From positions 1-64,000 of the forward strand of contig CAIJLV010000138.1 in the NCBI GenBank assembly GCA_903821635.1: a stretch of 64,000 nucleotides of DNA. Reading direction: 5' to 3'. Source of the DNA: an uncultured Verrucomicrobiota bacterium (GTDB taxonomy: Bacteria > Verrucomicrobiota > Verrucomicrobiia > Limisphaerales > UBA9464). Below, piece after piece: positions 9,434 through 55,440 of this stretch. The notes under the pieces were generated by a model. That model was not told where the DNA came from. It worked only from the letters and a program-made list of their open reading frames with translations, and did no database searches. Position 1 is the first letter of the stretch. The number at the start of each line of letters is the position of its first letter. Both the position numbers and the translations under genes were made by a program.

Positions 9434-9445
9434 CACAAGATTGGC

Positions 9446-9645
9446 AGCGCCGGAGGCGCGACAGAAAGTAGCCCACGGCGTGAGCCGTGGGGCGAAGTCG
9501 CGTTGCAGTCGAGCCCCGGTAGGGGCGACAGAGGTTGGGGCGGCGGCGGGTCAGTCTCTTTCGCCCCTTCCGGGGCTCACCCCGTTTGGTTTGTTACCCA
9601 CGGCTCACGCCGCGGGCTACTCTCTGTCGCCACTCCGTGGCGGGC
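9446..9645. repeat. Nested inverted-repeat element, copy A (complete)
   Basis: The outer arms are 9446-9490 and about 9596-9642. Both carry GCGACAGA(A/G)AGTAGCCC followed by an internal hairpin of the type ACGGCGTGAGCCGTGG. Inner arms GAGCCCCGGTAGGGGCGA and its imperfect complement (about 9511-9575) lie inside. The whole folds into one long nested stem. Related copies are at 54594-54717 and 55251-55440. No open frame of interest is contained. Confidence 0.8.
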
Positions 9646-13559: not shown

Positions 13560-13584
13560 GTAGCCGCCGAGGTGACGAGGCGGA
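13560..13584 (+). repeat. 25-bp repeat identical to one arm of the hairpin inside the kinase gene
   Basis: GTAGCCGCCGAGGTGACGAG followed by GCGGA occurs here, ten bases beyond the kinase stop codon. It also occurs in reverse complement at 15822-15846 within the kinase gene. The identity over 25 bases 2.2 kb apart is evidence for a dispersed repeat. Confidence 0.8.
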
Positions 13585-13593
13585 GGGGCGGGC

Positions 13594-16500
13594 CTACTCC
13601 ACCCGCCACAGCGTCACGATGCCGTCGCCACCGGCGACGGCGATCATCTTCCCGTCGGGGCTGAACGCGGCGTGCCAGAGCTGGAAGCCGCGCGGGGGCG
13701 TCAGGGTCAACAGTTCCACGCCCGCCCGCCAGTCCCACACCTTGACCTGCCCATCGAAGCTGCAGGAGACGAGCCGGCGGCCGTCCGGATGGAAGCTCAC
13801 GCCCGAGACGGCCCCGGCATGGCCGCGCAGGCTGCGCCGCACCCGCCCGGCGGAAGCCATTTCCCACAAGGTCACGGCGTTGTCGCTGTCGCCGGTGGCC
13901 AGCCATTGGCCGTCCGGGCTGAAGTCGGCGCAACGTTCCGGAAGCGCGGCCGCACTCCAGACCTCCTGCAAGTCCTCCGCCCGGCGGATGCTCAGCTTCA
14001 CCTTCTGGCAAAGCGCGAGCAGGCGGCCATCCGGCGAGACGGCGATCCCATCGAGCGTGTTTTCCAGTCCGCTGATCGAGTTGAGGTGCCGGCCGGTGGC
14101 GGCATCGAGGACGGTGAGCCTGTCCTGCTTGCTGGGTGCGTAGAGCCGGCGGCCATCGGGACTGAAGGCGAGCCAATACGGGCGTGTGGCGGGGGCGAGC
14201 GATGTTTCCCACTGCGTTTCGAGGGACGTCAGAGTCCACAACCGCACATTCTGGTCTTGGTCCGCGCTGGCCACGCGACCCTCGCGGCTCACCGCCATGG
14301 CGATGGGCCGCCCCCGCGAGTGCCCGGTGTAGGTCCCGTCCCGCTGGCCGTCCCGCGCGTCCCAAACGAAGACTTGAGGGTCGAGTCCGGCGGCCACCAG
14401 CCATCGGCTGTCCGGACTGAACGCGACGTTGCGCAATGCATCTGGATACCCCGTAAGCGAGATCACCCCTGGCCGCCCGGCCTGCCACAGGCAGATGCCC
14501 TCCGCGGAGACAGCGAGAATCCGTTCGTCCGGCAGCAACCGGATCAGGGTCCCCGATTGGCGGCGGGCGGGAAAGCGCTCCACCTGCGCGCGCCGATCCA
14601 AATCCCAGATTTGAATCAGGCCCGCAAAATCACCGATGACCAGGCGCCGGCTGTCGGTGCTGAAGGAGAATGACGACACTTCCGCTCCCGTGTTCAACTC
14701 CAGCGAGCGTCCCTCGTCGTCCAGATTCCATACCCGGTGATCGCGAGCAAAGCCGCCGGCGGTGCCGTTGGCGGCGGCCAGCTTCCGGCCGTCCGGACTG
14801 AAGAGCAGTTGGAAGAAGTGAGGCCCCGGAGTCCGCAGGGTGCGGCGCACGGTGCCGGTGGCGGCGTCCAGCAATTGGATGTCCTTCTCCACGGTCCCGA
14901 CCGCGAGGGTCTGGCCGTCGGGTGAGAAGGCCAGCGCGAGAACAGAAGCCGGGGCGGAGAAGAGGGGCTGGTGCCGACCGGTCTTCGCATCCCAGATGCG
15001 GATCTCCGTTTCGTTGGCCACGAACGCCAGGCGCTGCCCGTCGTTGGACCAGTCCAGGCTCTGGCCCGCGCCGGCGATCCCCGCAACGCGCTCCCCGGTG
15101 CGCACGTTCCAGATTGTGACGCCCCCTTCTGCCGCCTCGACCACGGCCAGAAGCTCGCCGCGGGGCGCGAGGGCCAAGGGAGCCTTGGCCGGGTTCGTGA
15201 CGGGAAGGTTGCGCAGCCATTGTCCGGAGGGAAACGCCCGGACCTGGAGCTGGCCGTCGTTGGCCATGACCATCAGGCTGGCGTCGGCCGAAAGGGCGAC
15301 GGCTCCAAGATTCGTCGAGGGAAGCAGGACCTTTTGTTCCCAGCGGCCGGACTGCTGATGAAGGAAGTTCCATTCCCAGTGCCGCAGATCGGGCGGGCAA
15401 CGGTCCAGCAGCGTGCGCATCAGCTCGGTCTGCCCGGCCTGCCAGGCGAGGCCCGCGCGATTCACCTCGGACACGTAAAGGCGCTGGCGAAAATCTTGGT
15501 TGGCGCGGTATTGCACGAACCGGACGCCAGCGACCGCCAGCACCAGCGCGAGCATAACGACCGCCGCCGCCGCGAAGCGGAGCCGGTTCCGGCGCACGAG
15601 TTTCCCGACCCGATACGCCCTGCTGGGGGGCCGGGCGACGACGGGCTCGTTGGCCAGATGCCGCTGGAGGTCGGCGGCCAGGCCGTTCGCCGTCTCGTAA
15701 CGCCGCGCCCGGTCCTTCTCCAGGCACTTGAGCACGATCCAGTCGAGGTCGCCGCGGAGCCGTTGGACCTGCTCCTGTAGCCGCCGACGTGCGGAGGCGG
15801 AGGCTGCGTCCGCACCCTCCGTCCGCCTCGTCACCTCGGCGGCTACGAGCGTCTGGCTGAGCTTGGTCGAGGGCCGCACGGGCTCGGTCTCCCGGAGGGT
15901 CCGGCGCATCGCTTCGAGGCCGGACTGGAGCAAGGTCGTGCCGTCAAACGGAGTCTGCCCGGTGAGCAGTTCGTAAAGGAGCACGCCGAGCGCGTAGATG
16001 TCGGTGCGGGTGTCGATGTCCGTGGCGTTGAACTCGGCCTGCTCCGGGCTCATGTAGGCCGGCGTGCCGATGAACATGTCGAAGCGCGTGAAGAGCGTCT
16101 TGTCCGTGAGCTGGATGCCGGCCGTGGCCTTGGCGATCCCGAAATCGATCACCTTGGGCAGCGGCACGCCGTCGTCGGAGGTGACGAGGATGTTCGAGGG
16201 CTTGAGGTCGCGGTGGATGATCCCCTTCTGGTGCGCGTGCTGCACCGCCTGGCAGACCTGGATGAACAACTGGAGCCGCGCGGCGGTGGAAAGCTGATTC
16301 TGTTCGCAGTAGTCGGTGATCCGGATGCCCCGCACCAGCTCCATCACGAAGTAGGGCCGGCCCGAGTCGGTCGTCCCTGCGTCGAGCACGCGGGCGATGT
16401 TGGCGTGGTCCATCATGGCCAACGCCTGCCGCTCCGCCTCGAAACGCGCGATGACCGAGCGCGTGTCCATGCCCAGCCTGATGACCTTCAGCGCCACGCG

Positions 16501-16818
16501 CCGCCGGACCGGTTCGGTCTGCTCGGCCATGTAGACGACCCCGCACCCGCCCTCGCCGATCTTTTGGAGCAACTTGTAGCGCCCGATGCGGTCGCCCTCC
16601 TTCGCGATCACCCCGACGGACGCCGCCGAAACATCACGTTCCGGGTCCGCCAGAAAACCACCCGCCGCGTCCTGGGCGCGTAACAGTCCCTCGACCTCCG
16701 CCCGGAGGGCCGCGTCGTCGCCGCAGGCCTGGTCGAGGAAGGCGCGGCGCGGTTCCCCGGGTGGCATCTCCGCGGCCTCATCGAAGATCATGCGGAGCGA
16801 TTCGTGGAAATCAGCCAT
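13594..16818 (-). CDS. WD40-repeat transmembrane Ser/Thr protein kinase
   Basis: This 1074-residue Hanks-type kinase has a cytosolic kinase domain at about residues 79-380. The glycine loop is IGEGGCGVVY, the ATP Lys is K111, the catalytic loop HRDLKPSN is at 202-209, DFG is at 225-227, and SPEQ is near 257. One transmembrane helix (about 414-436) follows. The rest is a run of WD40-type repeats (SPDGRRL, IWD, LWE motifs), presumably extracytoplasmic. This architecture is typical of Planctomycetota and Verrucomicrobiota. Residues about 325-348 (VAAEVTRRTEGADAASASAR and following) come from an in-frame hairpin insertion between the kinase core and the conserved RGDLDWIV segment. It lies 44 bp downstream of an ECF sigma gene on the same strand, so the two are probably co-expressed. 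Confidence 0.95.
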   Translation of the reverse strand: MADFHESLRMIFDEAAEMPPGEPRRAFLDQACGDDAALRAEVEGLLRAQDAAGGFLADPERDVSAASVGVIAKEGDRIGRYKLLQKIGEGGCGVVYMAEQTEPVRRRVALKVIRLGMDTRSVIARFEAERQALAMMDHANIARVLDAGTTDSGRPYFVMELVRGIRITDYCEQNQLSTAARLQLFIQVCQAVQHAHQKGIIHRDLKPSNILVTSDDGVPLPKVIDFGIAKATAGIQLTDKTLFTRFDMFIGTPAYMSPEQAEFNATDIDTRTDIYALGVLLYELLTGQTPFDGTTLLQSGLEAMRRTLRETEPVRPSTKLSQTLVAAEVTRRTEGADAASASARRRLQEQVQRLRGDLDWIVLKCLEKDRARRYETANGLAADLQRHLANEPVVARPPSRAYRVGKLVRRNRLRFAAAAVVMLALVLAVAGVRFVQYRANQDFRQRLYVSEVNRAGLAWQAGQTELMRTLLDRCPPDLRHWEWNFLHQQSGRWEQKVLLPSTNLGAVALSADASLMVMANDGQLQVRAFPSGQWLRNLPVTNPAKAPLALAPRGELLAVVEAAEGGVTIWNVRTGERVAGIAGAGQSLDWSNDGQRLAFVANETEIRIWDAKTGRHQPLFSAPASVLALAFSPDGQTLAVGTVEKDIQLLDAATGTVRRTLRTPGPHFFQLLFSPDGRKLAAANGTAGGFARDHRVWNLDDEGRSLELNTGAEVSSFSFSTDSRRLVIGDFAGLIQIWDLDRRAQVERFPARRQSGTLIRLLPDERILAVSAEGICLWQAGRPGVISLTGYPDALRNVAFSPDSRWLVAAGLDPQVFVWDARDGQRDGTYTGHSRGRPIAMAVSREGRVASADQDQNVRLWTLTSLETQWETSLAPATRPYWLAFSPDGRRLYAPSKQDRLTVLDAATGRHLNSISGLENTLDGIAVSPDGRLLALCQKVKLSIRRAEDLQEVWSAAALPERCADFSPDGQWLATGDSDNAVTLWEMASAGRVRRSLRGHAGAVSGVSFHPDGRRLVSCSFDGQVKVWDWRAGVELLTLTPPRGFQLWHAAFSPDGKMIAVAGGDGIVTLWRVE
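15777..15846. repeat. Hairpin repeat inserted in frame in the kinase gene
   Basis: Two 25-bp arms (15777-15801 and 15822-15846) form an imperfect inverted repeat around a 20-bp loop. The second arm is identical to 13560-13584. The insertion codes for an Ala/Arg-rich linker in the kinase and does not break the frame. Confidence 0.8.
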
Positions 16819-27400: not shown

Positions 27401-30400
27401 GCAGGATGCGGAATCCGTCATCGAAAAACTCGACGGTGGCGGCGAGGCGGTTACCCGCGAAAAGCAGCTCCGCATTTTTGAGGTGAAGGGTGATCCCGAC
27501 GCCCTAGCGACGCTCTTGCAGAAAGTGTTCTCCGCGCAAAATCCGGGTCGGAATCTGAGCAGTGTGCTGAGCATCACGCCCGAGCCGGCGAGCAAGCGCC
27601 TGCTGGTGCTTGCTTCGCCCACGGTGCTTGCTCAGGTCGAGACGATGGTCACCGCGCTGGACGCCAAACCCGAGCAGGGCGTGCGTGAGCTGCACTCGGT
27701 GGAGTTGAAGAATGCGACCGCTGCCGACCTCATGACGAAGGTCAACCAGATCTACGCCGAGCAGTCGCAGGGCAAAACCCTCAAGCCGGCGACGATCTAT
27801 CCCGACGCGTCTGGCACCCGCTTGCTCGTTCAAGGCACAGACGAACAAGCCGCGAGCATTCAGCAGATTGTTAGCACGCTGGAAAGCCAGGTCCGGCCCG
27901 CCCGGGAAACCAAGGTGTTCGACCTCGGCAAGCTCGCCGAAGCGCAACGCCTCATGCCGTTGGTGCAGCAGCTTTACCGCGATCAACTTGCGAGCACCCC
28001 GCAACTGGGTTCGCCCGACGCCCAGATCGTCAGCGACGGCAAAACCGGACGCGTGTTCGTGAGTGCGCGCGCCGACCAGTTAAAAACGGTGGAAGACATC
28101 ATCGCACGCCTCCAGTTGAACGCCGGGCCCGGGCAGGCATCCCGCGAAACCAAGACCTTCGAAGTGGGCACCGCGGCGGACGTTCAGCGCCTGCACCCGC
28201 TCGTTCAGCAGCTCTATCAGGACCAGTGGAAGGACAAGCAAGACACCGATCCGGCCGACGCCCAGATTATGGCTGATCCCAAGGCGGGCCGCCTCATCAT
28301 TACGGGGAAACCCGAGCATTTGAAACAGATTGAGGCCATCCTCCAACAGCTCGGCACCGGCAAGGCGCGCACGGAAAATCGGCAGACGCGCATCATTGAT
28401 TTGACGACCGCCAGCGCGGTGGAACTCGCGACGACGGTGCGCACGCTTTACTTGGAGGAAGCCAAGGGGCGCTTAGGGGGATCCACTCCCGACACGCTCA
28501 TCACGCCCGACACCGGCGGCAATCGGCTCATCCTCGTGGGTGACACCAACGAGCTGGCCGCGGTCGAAGAAGTGGTCCGCAAACTCGATAAGGCTAGCGC
28601 CCAAAGCGCCTCAGCCCGCGTGTTCAAGATCAAGTCCGCCGAACCTGAAAAGGTCGCCGAAATCCTGACCACCTCTCTCGTGCGTTACGACGCCTACGGC
28701 CGGCCTCAAAAACGGGCCACGGTGTCGGTGGACGCCAAGACTCGCACGCTGATCGTGACCGGCGATCCGAAGGAATTGCAGGGCGTTTCCCTGATCATCG
28801 AACAGTTGGACCAATCGCTCGGCGAGGTGCCGGAACGTCGGACCAAAGTCATCACGCTGAAACAGGGCCGGGCGGCGACCCTTTCGCCCAAGGTGCGCCA
28901 GCTTTACGCGGACCGCATCAAGAGCCAGCCGGAGCTGTCCACGTCGGATATTCTCATTTTGGAAGAGGGCGAGAGCAACCAACTCATCATCGCCGGCAAC
29001 GACGCCCAGTTGAAGGTCGTGGACCAGATTGTGGACGAACTTCAATCCGCGCAGTTGACCCGCGTCGGCCGCGAAACTCGGCTGTTGTCCGTGGGCAGCG
29101 CCGATGAATTGGCCCGGCTTCAGCCGTTGGTCCAGCAACTCTACACCGACCGCTTCAAGGGGCGTGATGCGAGCGATCCGGCCGACGCGCAAATCATCCC
29201 CGATGCCAAAAACGCCCGCTTCATCGTGACCGCGCGCACGAACCACATTGAGGAAATTGAAGCGATTCTGACCCAGTTGCGGAGTAACGAAACCGCGTTT
29301 CAAGCGCGCGATACCCGGGTGTTTGACCTGACCACGGCCAACGCCGTGGAGCTCTCCACCACCGTGCGGACGCTCTATACCGAACAGGCCAAGAATCGGC
29401 CCGGTGCGCCGGCGGCCGACACGCTCATCACGCCCGACGTGAGCGGCAACCGCATCATCGTCACCGGTGGCACGAACGAACTGGCCGTGGTCGAAGACCT
29501 CATCCGCAAGCTCGACAAGGTCGGCAGCCAGAGCGCCTCGGCCCGCGTCTTCAAGATCAAGTCGGCGGAGCCCGAAAAGGTGGCGGAAATCCTTTCGACG
29601 TCGCTGGTGCGTTACGACGCCTACGGTCGGGCCCAGAAGCGCGTCACGGTTTCGGTCGATGCGAAGACTCGGACGCTGATTGTCACGGGGGATCCCAAGG
29701 AACTGGCTGGCGTTTCCCTGATCATTGAGCAGTTGGACCAGTCACTCGGGGAAGTTCCGGAGCGAAAGACCAAGGTGATCAATCTCAAGCAGGGGAAGGC
29801 CTTGGTGCTCTCGCCCAAGGTGCGCCAACTTTACGCGGATCGCATCAAGAGTCAGCCGGAGTTGACCACGTCGGACATCCTCATCTTGGAAGAGGCGGAG
29901 AGTAATCAACTCATCATCGCCGGCAACGACGCGCAATTGAAGGTCGTGGGGCAGATTGTGGATGAATTGCAGTCCGCGCAGTTGACCCGCGCCGCCCGCG
30001 AAACCCGGCTGTTGGAAGTGGGCAGCGCCGACGAACTCAGCCGCCTTCAGCCGTTGGTCCAGCAACTCTACACCGACCGTTTCAAAGGCCGGGACGCGAG
30101 CGATCCGGCCGACGCGCAGATTATTCCCGATGCCAAGAACGCCCGCTTCATCGTGACCGCGCGGACCAATCACCTCGCGGAGATTGAGGAGATCCTCGCC
30201 CAGTTGCGCAGCAACGACACCGCGTTCCAGCCACGGGACACCCGAGTGTTTGACCTGACCTCGGCCAACGCCGTGGAGCTCTCCACCACCGTGCGGACGC
30301 TCTATACCGAACAGGCCAAAAATCGGCCCGGTGCGCCGGCGGCCGACACGCTCATCACGCCTGACGTGAGCGGCAACCGCATCATCGTCACCGGCGGCAC

Positions 30401-33400
30401 GAATGAACTGGCCGTGGTCGAAGACCTCATTCGCAAGCTCGACAAGGTCGGGGCCCAGAGCTCGACCGCCCGGGTGTTCAAGGTGAAGTCCGCGGACCCG
30501 GACAAGGTGGCGGAAATCCTTGGCACCGCGCTGGTCCGTTACGATGCCTACGGTCGGCCACAGAAACGGGTCAGCGTGGTGACCGACCCGAAGACCCGCA
30601 CCATCATCGCAACTGGTGATCCGAAGGAGCTTCAGGCGGCGGCGGTCATTATTGAGCAGTTGGATTCGTCGCTCGGAGCGGAAGCCGGCCGGTCGATGCG
30701 GGTGTTGCCGCTGAAAGATCGGCGCGCCTCCGAGATTAGCGCCAAGATTCGGCAGGTGTATCAGGATCAAGCCCGCAATAACCCTGAGTTTGGCACGACG
30801 GAGCCGCTGATTTTGGATGATGCCTTGAGCAATCAACTGATCGTGGCGGGCAACGAAAAGCAGCTCAATGCCCTCGCGGAAATCACTACCCTATTGCAGG
30901 CCGGCGGCACGACCGGTGGCCGGCAGTCAAAGGTGTTCCCGTTGCAGCGCTCTTCCGCCACTACGCTGGCGGGGATGATCGCGCAGCTTTACGCGCGCCG
31001 CGGTCAGACCGGCGATCCATCGGAGTGGGTGCTCGCCAGCACGGGCGGCAATGAACGGACCCTGGTGGTGGAAGCTCGTCCGGCGGTGCTTGAGCGGATC
31101 GAGCAATTGGTCAAGGAGGTGGACGGTGCCGGGCCGGACGGGGAAAACGTGATCCAAACGGTGCACCTCGAAAAGGGGCGCGCCGAAGACCTCGCCGAGG
31201 CGGTCAACCGGGTGCTGAGCGCCCGCGGCGACGCCGCGACCACCCGGCGCGTCAGCATTACGCCGGTGGCGGGTGCCAACAGCCTGTTGCTCAACGGGCC
31301 GACCAACGCTGTCCAGCAGGTCATCGACGTGATCCGTGGCCTCGACAAGGAAGGCGCCGGCAGCAGTGACATCGAAGTGCGCATCTACAAACTCGAAAAT
31401 GGCAGCGCGCGGGAAGTTTCCAGTGTGCTCCAGCAGTTGCTCCAATCCGTGTCCCGTAATTTCCGGCGCAGCCCGACCGGGCCTGGGGATAACGAGGGGG
31501 CTGGCGGCCGGCGGACGCCGCAGACCAGCGTCTCCGTGGATGAGCGTTCCAACAGCCTCATCATCTCGGCGACCGAGACGCATTTCAAAGTGGTGGAGAA
31601 GATCCTGCCGACGCTCGACAAAGCCCCGGAGCGCTCCGACCGCGACGTGCAGTTTGTCTGGTTGCGCAAGGCCAAGGCCTACGATGTCTCCTCCAAACTC
31701 GACACCCTGTTCGAGGATCGGCCCCGCGCCGACCGGCCGGTGATCGAGCCTGACCTCACGGCGAATTCGCTGACGATCATCGCGAAGCGCGGCGACATTC
31801 CCCAGATTCAGGACCTGATTTCCCGCCTCGACGAACAGGGCAAGGAATCCGCCGTGCAAGTTCGGTTGCGCCCGCTTGACCGTGTGGCCGCCGACCAAAT
31901 GGCTAAGATGCTGGTCAGCATCTACCCTCAGGTTTCCGGCACACCGCTGCGCTTGGCCGACAAGGTTTCGCCGCCGGCCGAGAAGCAGGATGCCGAGGAA
32001 CTCAAGGCCCCCGAAGTGGTCATTGCCGTGGATAAGGCGGCCAACGCGCTGATACTTTCCGGTCCGGCGCAGGAGTTGGACGGCGTGGATCGGTTGGTCA
32101 CCGAGCTGTCGCTGAACTTCTACGGCAACGAATCCGAATTTCGCCTGTTTGCGATCAAGGATGCCGATCCGGTCATTGTCGCCCGCACCCTCACCGAATT
32201 GCTGCGCCAGGACCCGGTTCAAGTGCAGCAACCCGGTCAGCCACCCCAAGCCGTTGCGCCCAAACAACGCATCACCGTCGTCGCGGAACCGCGCACGCGC
32301 AGCGTCATCGTGCGCGCGCGGCCGACGGACTTCGCGTTGATGGAGTCGTTGATCAAGCAACTCGACAACGCGGGGCAGATTGCCCAGTTGGATTTTCGCG
32401 TCGTGCCCCTAACCAATGCACCGCCGGAGAAGTTGCTGCCCCTCGTTCAGCAGATGGTCACCCAGCTCAGCGCCAGCCGCCCGGGCGATCCCGTCACCGT
32501 GGCGGTCGATTCGCGTGGCCGGGGATTGGTAGTGATCGCCCGGGACACGATGGCGACCCAAGTCGAAAAGCTGATCCAGTCACTCGATACACCAGCCGCC
32601 CACGTCGAGGTCGAGGTTCAGATCGTGCCGCTGAAGCAGGCGAATGCCGTCCAGCTAGCGGCCGTATTGCGGGGCATGCTCCGCCCCGGCACCGCCGGCG
32701 AGTCGACGTTGGAATCACGCGAACTGCAGGAGCAGGTGCGCCGGCTCAAGGTGCGCAACCCGCAGGGCGAGACCGTGCTGCTGGACCTTACCAAACCGAT
32801 CAAAATCGCCACCGACCCCGCGGCCGGTGCCGGCGGCGGCAACCGCCTGCTGCTCACCTCGACGCCGGACAACCTCGCGGCGTTGACCGCGATCGTGGGG
32901 CTGATGGATTCGGTGCCGGTGCTCGACGGGGTAAAGCTTCGTTTCGTGCAGTTGGAGCACGCCGACGCGGCGGCGGTGGCGCAGACGCTGACCTCGGTTT
33001 TCACCCAGGGCCGCACCTTAGCGGTGGGCCCCGCTGGTCCCGGCGCGCAGCCGGCAGAGCAGGGGAAGGCGCTGGTGCAACCGCTGAACGTGGCGGTGGA
33101 TAACCGGAGCAATACGCTGATCTTGAGCGGTCAACCCGACAGTCTGGATCTGGCCCAAAAGCTGATCGCCGACTTGGATCGGGAATTGTTCCGCTACGTG
33201 ACGGACGTGCGAATGTTCCGGCTCAAGCACGCTTCGGCCACTCGCCTAGTCCCGTTGTTACAATCGGTCTTCACCGAGGGAGCGGCCGTGCCGGGCACCG
33301 AAGGTCTTTCCACCCAGATCACCCGCCTGCGCACCTTGAAGGATGGCGAACGCGGCAAAGTGAACCAGACGCCGAAGAATCGTCCCGCGCTGACCATTCA

Positions 33401-54593: not shown

Positions 54594-54717
54594 GGCAAAA
54601 GGCCCGGCAGGGCCGGCAGAAAGTAGCCCCGGGCGTCAGCCCGGGGTAAATCGCCCCGTAGGGTCAGAGTCCCGGCAGGGGCGAATGGGCCCGAGTCTGC
54701 CACCCCCACTCGAACAG
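54594..54717. repeat. Nested inverted-repeat element, copy B (truncated)
   Basis: The outer left arm GGCCGGCAGAAAGTAGCCCC followed by the hairpin GGGCGTCAGCCCGGGG (54611-54646) is intact. The inner part (CCCGGCAGGGGCGAATGGGC) follows, but the right outer arm is missing. It sits at the break point of the VOC remnant and in direct orientation with copy C. Confidence 0.75.
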
Positions 54718-55250: not shown

Positions 55251-55440
55251 AATGGCCCGTTAGGGCTGACAGAAGGTAGGCCCGGGCGTGGGCCCGAGGT
55301 AAATCGTCCCCCAGTGGTAGCGCCCCGGCAGGGGCGAAAGAGGCGGATTCTGCCGCCCCTGCCAGGGCTCTACCGTTTCTCCTGCTTGTTCACCCCGGGC
55401 TCACGCCCGGGGCTACGTTCTGCCGCGCCTCCGGCGCTGA
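55251..55440. repeat. Nested inverted-repeat element, copy C (complete)
   Basis: The left outer arm (about 55251-55299, GGGCTGACAGAAGGTAGGCC then CGGGCGTGGGCCCG) pairs with the right arm (about 55391-55440, CCGGGCTCACGCCCGGGGCT then ACGTTCTGCC). Inner arms GGTAGCGCCCCGGCAGGGGC and its imperfect complement lie between. The structure is the same as copy A at 9446. Confidence 0.82.

What the first reader, a model, noticed from the sequence alone, without database searches (positions are those of the whole stretch)
15777..15846. Hairpin element inserted in frame in a protein kinase, with a 25-bp identical copy just past the gene
The 70-bp hairpin adds a linker (VAAEVTRRTEGADAASASAR...) between the kinase core and the conserved RGDLDWIV segment. 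One arm is identical over 25 bases to 13560-13584, ten bases beyond the stop of the same gene. This is a protein-coding repeat insertion that preserved the frame, of the kind known for palindromic elements in Rickettsia.
Basis: partly seen in the sequence, partly recalled or inferred. Interest (0 to 1): 0.6.

Follow-up and report, generated by a model that had tools for sequence, protein, structure and literature searches.

The report
Mobile palindrome repeatedly inside kinase genes
A small palindromic DNA repeat of the kind usually found between genes sits in frame inside a bacterial protein kinase, and related bacteria carry different families of the same kind of repeat at the same place in their kinases, so one spot in a protein keeps being occupied by mobile-type DNA.

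Summary
The 70-bp hairpin at 15777-15846 is a head-to-head pair of 24-bp GTAG-headed REP units (a REPIN), in frame in a kinase-WD40 gene; a third, single unit lies 9 bases past the stop. The unit is dispersed in the genome and occurs in 41 of 145 related genomes. Relatives show more than a one-off insertion: in 37 of 119 distinct kinase linkers examined (27 genomes) the linker holds REPIN arms at the same place and frame, of several different REP families. One genome carries three families in paralogous kinases. Orthologous genes 95% identical in DNA differ by a whole linker cassette (REPIN plus a few flanking codons) that replaces the ordinary linker, net +8 residues. So 'simple insertion into the linker' is only partly right; the best reading is a shared coding site where REPIN-bearing cassettes are exchanged between kinases. 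In-frame GTAG REPs in genes are already published (PMC3733652); I found no report of this kinase hotspot in the library searched. The family's transposase was not identified, and the recombination route is inferred.

The parts
15777..15846 (-). REPIN: two inverted GTAG-type REP units, 70 bp, reads VAAEVTRRTEGADAASASARRRL in the kinase frame
15823..15846 (-). REP unit GTAGCCGCCGAGGTGACGAGGCGG (first arm in gene direction)
15777..15800 (+). REP unit GTAGCCGCCGACGTGCGGAGGCGG (second arm, opposite strand, 1 mismatch to the family pattern)
13560..13583 (+). Single REP unit, identical to the first arm, just past the kinase stop codon
13594..16818 (-). Host gene: PknB-like Ser/Thr kinase (Pfam Pkinase, residues 81-376) with C-terminal WD40 propellers, 1074 aa; repeat-encoded residues start at 325, in the linker between helices alphaG and alphaH of the kinase C-lobe

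Best explanation
The hairpin is a REPIN (head-to-head pair of GTAG REP units) living in frame in the alphaG-alphaH linker of a kinase. In this order of Verrucomicrobiota the linker is a shared site for such elements. Linker cassettes, each a REPIN plus a few flanking codons, replace the ordinary linker and are exchanged between kinase paralogues and genomes by homologous recombination through the nearly invariant motifs on either side (RPST and RGDLDWIV). Several REP families occupy the site. It is tolerated because a REPIN of length 3k+1 keeps an open frame (VAA..RRRL) in either orientation and encodes a short, probably helical, surface insert. Shown: the repeat, its dispersal, the same place and frame, different families at the site, close pairs with and without it. 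Inferred: recombination as the exchange route, first entry by RAYT-type transposition, and lack of an essential function of the peptide.
For: Dispersed family: 12 sites in the own genome; 41 of 145 relatives at up to 1 mismatch, up to 271 copies. Same place: 37 of 119 distinct linkers have at least one recognisable REP arm; most left arms start 27 nt after the PST codon and the element length is 3k+1 except in family F. Several families (A to E, and the unrelated F in L167); G185 alone has A, C and F. Second repeats nested in frame in L155 and L172. Close pairs with different linkers: L076 (A) and L096 (ordinary), 95.4% over 950 nt of flanks; L135 (A) and L140 (C), 89.6%; L140 and L272 (ordinary), 89.2%. 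Third-codon-position identity in arms against flanks: 0.85 v 0.54 (6 family-A kinases, 15 of 15 pairs) and 0.89 v 0.48 (9 family-B kinases, 36 of 36 pairs). Genomes whose kinase carries a family hold more copies of it elsewhere: p 0.006, 0.008, 0.001 over 49 genomes. Kinases with and without REPIN are intermixed in the tree: 21 changes against a shuffled mean of 20.8.
Against: No linker was found that is the ordinary one split by a REPIN, so the first entry is not seen. Some genomes with an intact kinase REPIN have no further copy of that family (G005: two sites, the number its kinase accounts for), so refreshing from local copies cannot be general. The spacer (..EEEV..) is alike across families B, C and E, which also fits one old insertion with later change of the arms. 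No RAYT gene with family A units beside it was found at 35 RAYT-type loci. The tree has many open forks, four long end branches and two rows of odd make-up. Arm identity is inflated because families were assigned by likeness to a consensus. The genomes are mostly fragmented drafts.
Confidence: 0.68

Rival explanations
1. One old REPIN insertion in an ancestral kinase, inherited and diversified; the different families are products of mutation and of gene conversion by genomic REPINs.
For: Shared spacer residues (EEEV..A[SD]SRR.LR.KE) in families B, C and E; decayed versions such as L142, L164-L166; 14 of 36 REPIN kinases have another REPIN kinase as nearest flank.
Against: 22 of 36 REPIN kinases are nearest to a kinase without recognisable arms (such kinases are also 82 of the 119); family F is unrelated in sequence and has another length class and right junction.
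Confidence: 0.2
2. Independent direct transposition (RAYT) of REPINs into the same linker many times, because it is a preferred target.
For: Several families at one place; the left flank is usually CTC, CTG or CTT; an ArgJ-like protein and a PVC-type heme protein also have REPINs at one shared site in different genomes.
Against: Close pairs show replacement of the ordinary linker including flanking codons, not insertion into it. Part of the shared sites in the heme protein may be inheritance (G000 and G001 are one genus).
Confidence: 0.12
3. An ordinary old piece of the protein kept by protein-level selection that resembles a REP by chance.
For: Homologues share VAA..SRR.L residues.
Against: The DNA is a dispersed repeat; third positions are conserved beyond the flanks; unrelated proteins carry the same peptide.
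Confidence: 0.03
4. Assembly chimeras between kinase paralogues in draft genomes create the linker differences.
For: Most genomes are fragmented; kinases are multicopy.
Against: Elements keep frame, arms and place in 27 genomes; L076 and L096 match on both sides of the linker over more than 2 kb.
Confidence: 0.04

Closest known systems
GTAG-tagged REP families and intragenic REPs (Di Nocera et al. 2013, PMC3733652; abstract, outline, sections 5 and 15, and passages read)
   Same: GTAG head; head-to-head dimers, most 20-100 bp apart; REPs inside genes, inserts encoding 20-30 residues; most intragenic GTAG cases in the verrucomicrobium O. terrae, uvrA among them; different REPs at about the same site in recB of two Xanthomonas species
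   Different: The parts read report no kinase site, no cassette replacement, and no one site shared by many genomes and families
REPINs and RAYTs (PMC3116915; search listing only)
   Same: Pair of inverted REPs as the unit, many copies per genome (recalled)
   Different: Here in coding DNA; matching RAYT not identified
Rickettsia palindromic elements (Ogata et al. 2000, 2002; seen only through passages of PMC10969869 and PMC3733652)
   Same: Palindrome in frame in unrelated proteins
   Different: About 150 bp for those cited, or CGTC-tagged (RPE-4, RPE-6); no GTAG; other bacteria

Membership tests
GTAG REP / REPIN | GTAG tetranucleotide at one end | tested here: met
   all three window units
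GTAG REP / REPIN | stem-loop behind the tag | tested here: met
   CCGCC..GGCGG, 5-bp stem with 10-nt loop, read from the sequence; short against the published 6-13 bp, though 5 bp is reported for one species
GTAG REP / REPIN | dispersed multicopy repeat, often as head-to-head pairs | tested here: met
GTAG REP / REPIN | cognate RAYT gene next to units of the same family | tested here: inconclusive
   5 RAYT-type hits in the own genome, all with other GTAG/GTGG hairpins near; no family A unit at 35 loci; one family B pair near a RAYT-type gene of G187
Rickettsia palindromic element | in-frame insertion in unrelated proteins | tested here: met
Rickettsia palindromic element | RPE sequence (CGTC tag for RPE-4 and RPE-6) | tested here: not met
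   units bear GTAG; tag of RPEs taken from PMC3733652

The most novel reading that the evidence does not exclude
The alphaG-alphaH linker of these kinases is an evolved exchange site: REPIN hairpins inside the genes act as recombination handles that let kinases swap linker modules among paralogues and species, so mobile palindromes generate diversity in a signalling family.
Probability: 0.2. Interest if true: 0.85.

Novelty: new variant of a known kind. Interest (0 to 1): 0.58.

Why it matters
In-frame palindromic repeats have been described as variably placed in unrelated genes. A single protein position occupied by several REP families in at least 27 genomes, with close relatives lacking it, gives natural replicates for asking how mobile DNA enters proteins, whether it is neutral, and what moves it.

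Tried and rejected
RAYT for family A: 35 loci looked at, not found. Frame bias of REPs in genes from pattern-chosen loci: 36 of 83 elements lie in a long read-through frame, frames 18/13/5; many such ORFs are probably spurious in GC-rich DNA, so not used. Clean empty site through ArgJ: relatives of the same genus have short tandem repeats or other sequence in that loop, so no base-exact empty site. The kinase structure model is of moderate quality (mean pLDDT 73.7; 54-59 in the linker), so helix-loop-helix is only a hint. Names: the one genome-collection scan returned 7 stretches, labelled Pedosphaera sp., Verrucomicrobiales, and Akkermansia muciniphila (the last I distrust). Dropped before counts: 10 of 129 linkers as duplicates; L077 and L149 left out of the flank statistics because their flanks do not align with the rest (they were and in the tree). 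Linkers that the text pattern missed (for example G110 C33, and L168 of G156) are not among the 119. The 119 come from best-scoring hits, so 37 of 119 is not a prevalence.

Full report
Observation. The window holds a 1074-residue kinase-WD40 gene on the minus strand, 13594-16818. Within it, 15777-15846 is a 70-nt inverted repeat that folds at -52.7 kcal/mol, z -6.6. Each arm begins GTAG. The arm 15823-15846 (GTAGCCGCCGAGGTGACGAGGCGG) recurs exactly at 13560-13583, nine bases past the stop codon, and the match runs 25 bases.

What it is. The unit is a dispersed repeat. The own genome (237 contigs, 87% complete) has 12 sites with up to 3 mismatches, the reversed control none. Three of the places are in genes: this kinase; a kinase remnant at C68 from which most of the kinase core is missing; and a 73-bp pair in frame in a PVC-type heme protein at C194 (the name is my reading of the sequence). 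Of 145 related genomes searched (the own one counted among them), 41 have it at up to 1 mismatch, with up to 271 copies; the reversed control gave one hit in all. GTAG heads, head-to-head pairing and dispersal fit the GTAG REP superfamily (PMC3733652).

Relatives. I collected kinase linkers from hits to the window kinase and to an alignment of REPIN-type linkers over 320 genomes of the order (65 of 320 had a match, non-kinase copies included). Of 119 distinct linkers, 37 have at least one arm within 4 mismatches of a REP consensus; 82 have none. The 37 come from 27 genomes (places). The left arm mostly starts 27 nt after the PST codon, in the same frame; lengths of elements in these 37 run from 70 to 139 nt and are 3k+1, except family F with 72. 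Families: A as in the window; B GTAGCAGCCGACGTNAGGAGGCTC; C GTAGCAGCGAACGTNAGTTCGCTC; D and E with GGAC/GTCC stems; F GTAGCGGCGTCTCGGTAGAGCGCCGC, unrelated. G185 has A (L136), C (L140, L144, L145) and F (L167). L155 and L172 carry a second repeat inside the first, in frame.

Insertion or exchange. L076 (family A, genome G030) and L096 (ordinary linker, G004) are alike over more than 2 kb and 95.4% identical in the 950 nt around the linker. Exact identity stops 16 bases into the linker and resumes for its last 12; between them TQAM-REPIN-QELVN stands where the other has ordinary linker. L135 (A) and L140 (C) are 89.6% alike in flanks with different families; L140 and L272 (ordinary) 89.2%. So whole linker cassettes are replaced. 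By flank DNA, 22 of 36 REPIN kinases that could be compared are nearest to a kinase without recognisable arms, 14 to another REPIN kinase. The tree of 62 rows needs 21 changes between with and without, as many as shuffled labels (20.8); well-supported branches alone force 8. That tree has many weak forks and four long rows.

DNA-level identity. Arms of kinases of one family agree at third codon positions more than their flanks do: 0.85 v 0.54 (family A, 6 kinases), 0.89 v 0.48 (family B, 9 kinases). Assignment to a family by likeness inflates this. Genomes whose kinase has a family hold more other copies of it (Mann-Whitney p 0.006 for A, 0.008 for B, 0.001 for C/D/E; 49 genomes that I chose, kinase copies subtracted by hand), but G005 has no more than its kinase accounts for.

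Other proteins. In-frame REPINs also occur in proteins that by their sequence look like ArgJ (L176, L188, L343: same site in two family-level groups), alanyl-tRNA synthetase (L179), histidinol-phosphate aminotransferase (L178), UvrA (L185) and the heme protein (L006, L175, L180); these names are my reading and come from no database call. They were found with a query in this frame, so they say nothing on frame bias.

Place in the protein. Pfam Pkinase spans residues 81-376. Against PknB (3f69) the unmatched stretch of the window kinase lies before LDAVVLKAL; the helix names alphaG and alphaH are recalled. The model has helices at 273-286 and 296-308 (model numbering) around the repeat-encoded loop, but with pLDDT 54-59 there; the best fold match is the kinase PknS.

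Mechanism. Shown: repeat, dispersal, recurrence at one place, several families, replacement in close relatives. Inferred: homologous recombination through flanking motifs, transposase origin, neutrality. RAYT-type genes exist in the own genome but stand near other GTAG/GTGG hairpins.

Literature. REPs inside genes are known, O. terrae having most among GTAG species (PMC3733652, section 15 read). My searches for REPIN/RAYT with coding terms, palindromic elements in coding genes, Verrucomicrobia REPs, and kinase with REPIN (open-licence PMC library only) listed no report of this kinase site. The supplementary list of intragenic REPs of that paper was not available to me, so kinases may be in it.

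Noticed in passing
window 9445-9491, 9597-9637, 54602-54650, 55389-55439: Other GTAG hairpins (GTAGCCCACGGCGTGAGCCGTGGG type), of the type that stands beside RAYT-type genes of the own genome at L029 and L030.
   Followed up: partly
L333-L341 (genus of G207), ArgJ-like loop: Where G207 and G209 carry a REPIN, several relatives of the same genus have short tandem repeats (e.g. AGTCAGA units) in frame in the same loop.
   Followed up: partly
L026 1207-1692 (own genome C68): Kinase remnant lacking most of its core but keeping the REP-bearing linker.
   Followed up: no
L155, L172: Second palindromic element nested in frame inside a kinase REPIN.
   Followed up: no
L088: Kinase linker with a run of SA-type repeats next to a REP arm, possibly a slippage expansion of the arm.
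   Followed up: no
window 28489-30642: Three direct copies of 300 nt spaced 927 bp.
   Followed up: no
L178, L179, L183, L185: In-frame REPINs in proteins that look like biosynthesis, translation and DNA repair enzymes.
   Followed up: partly
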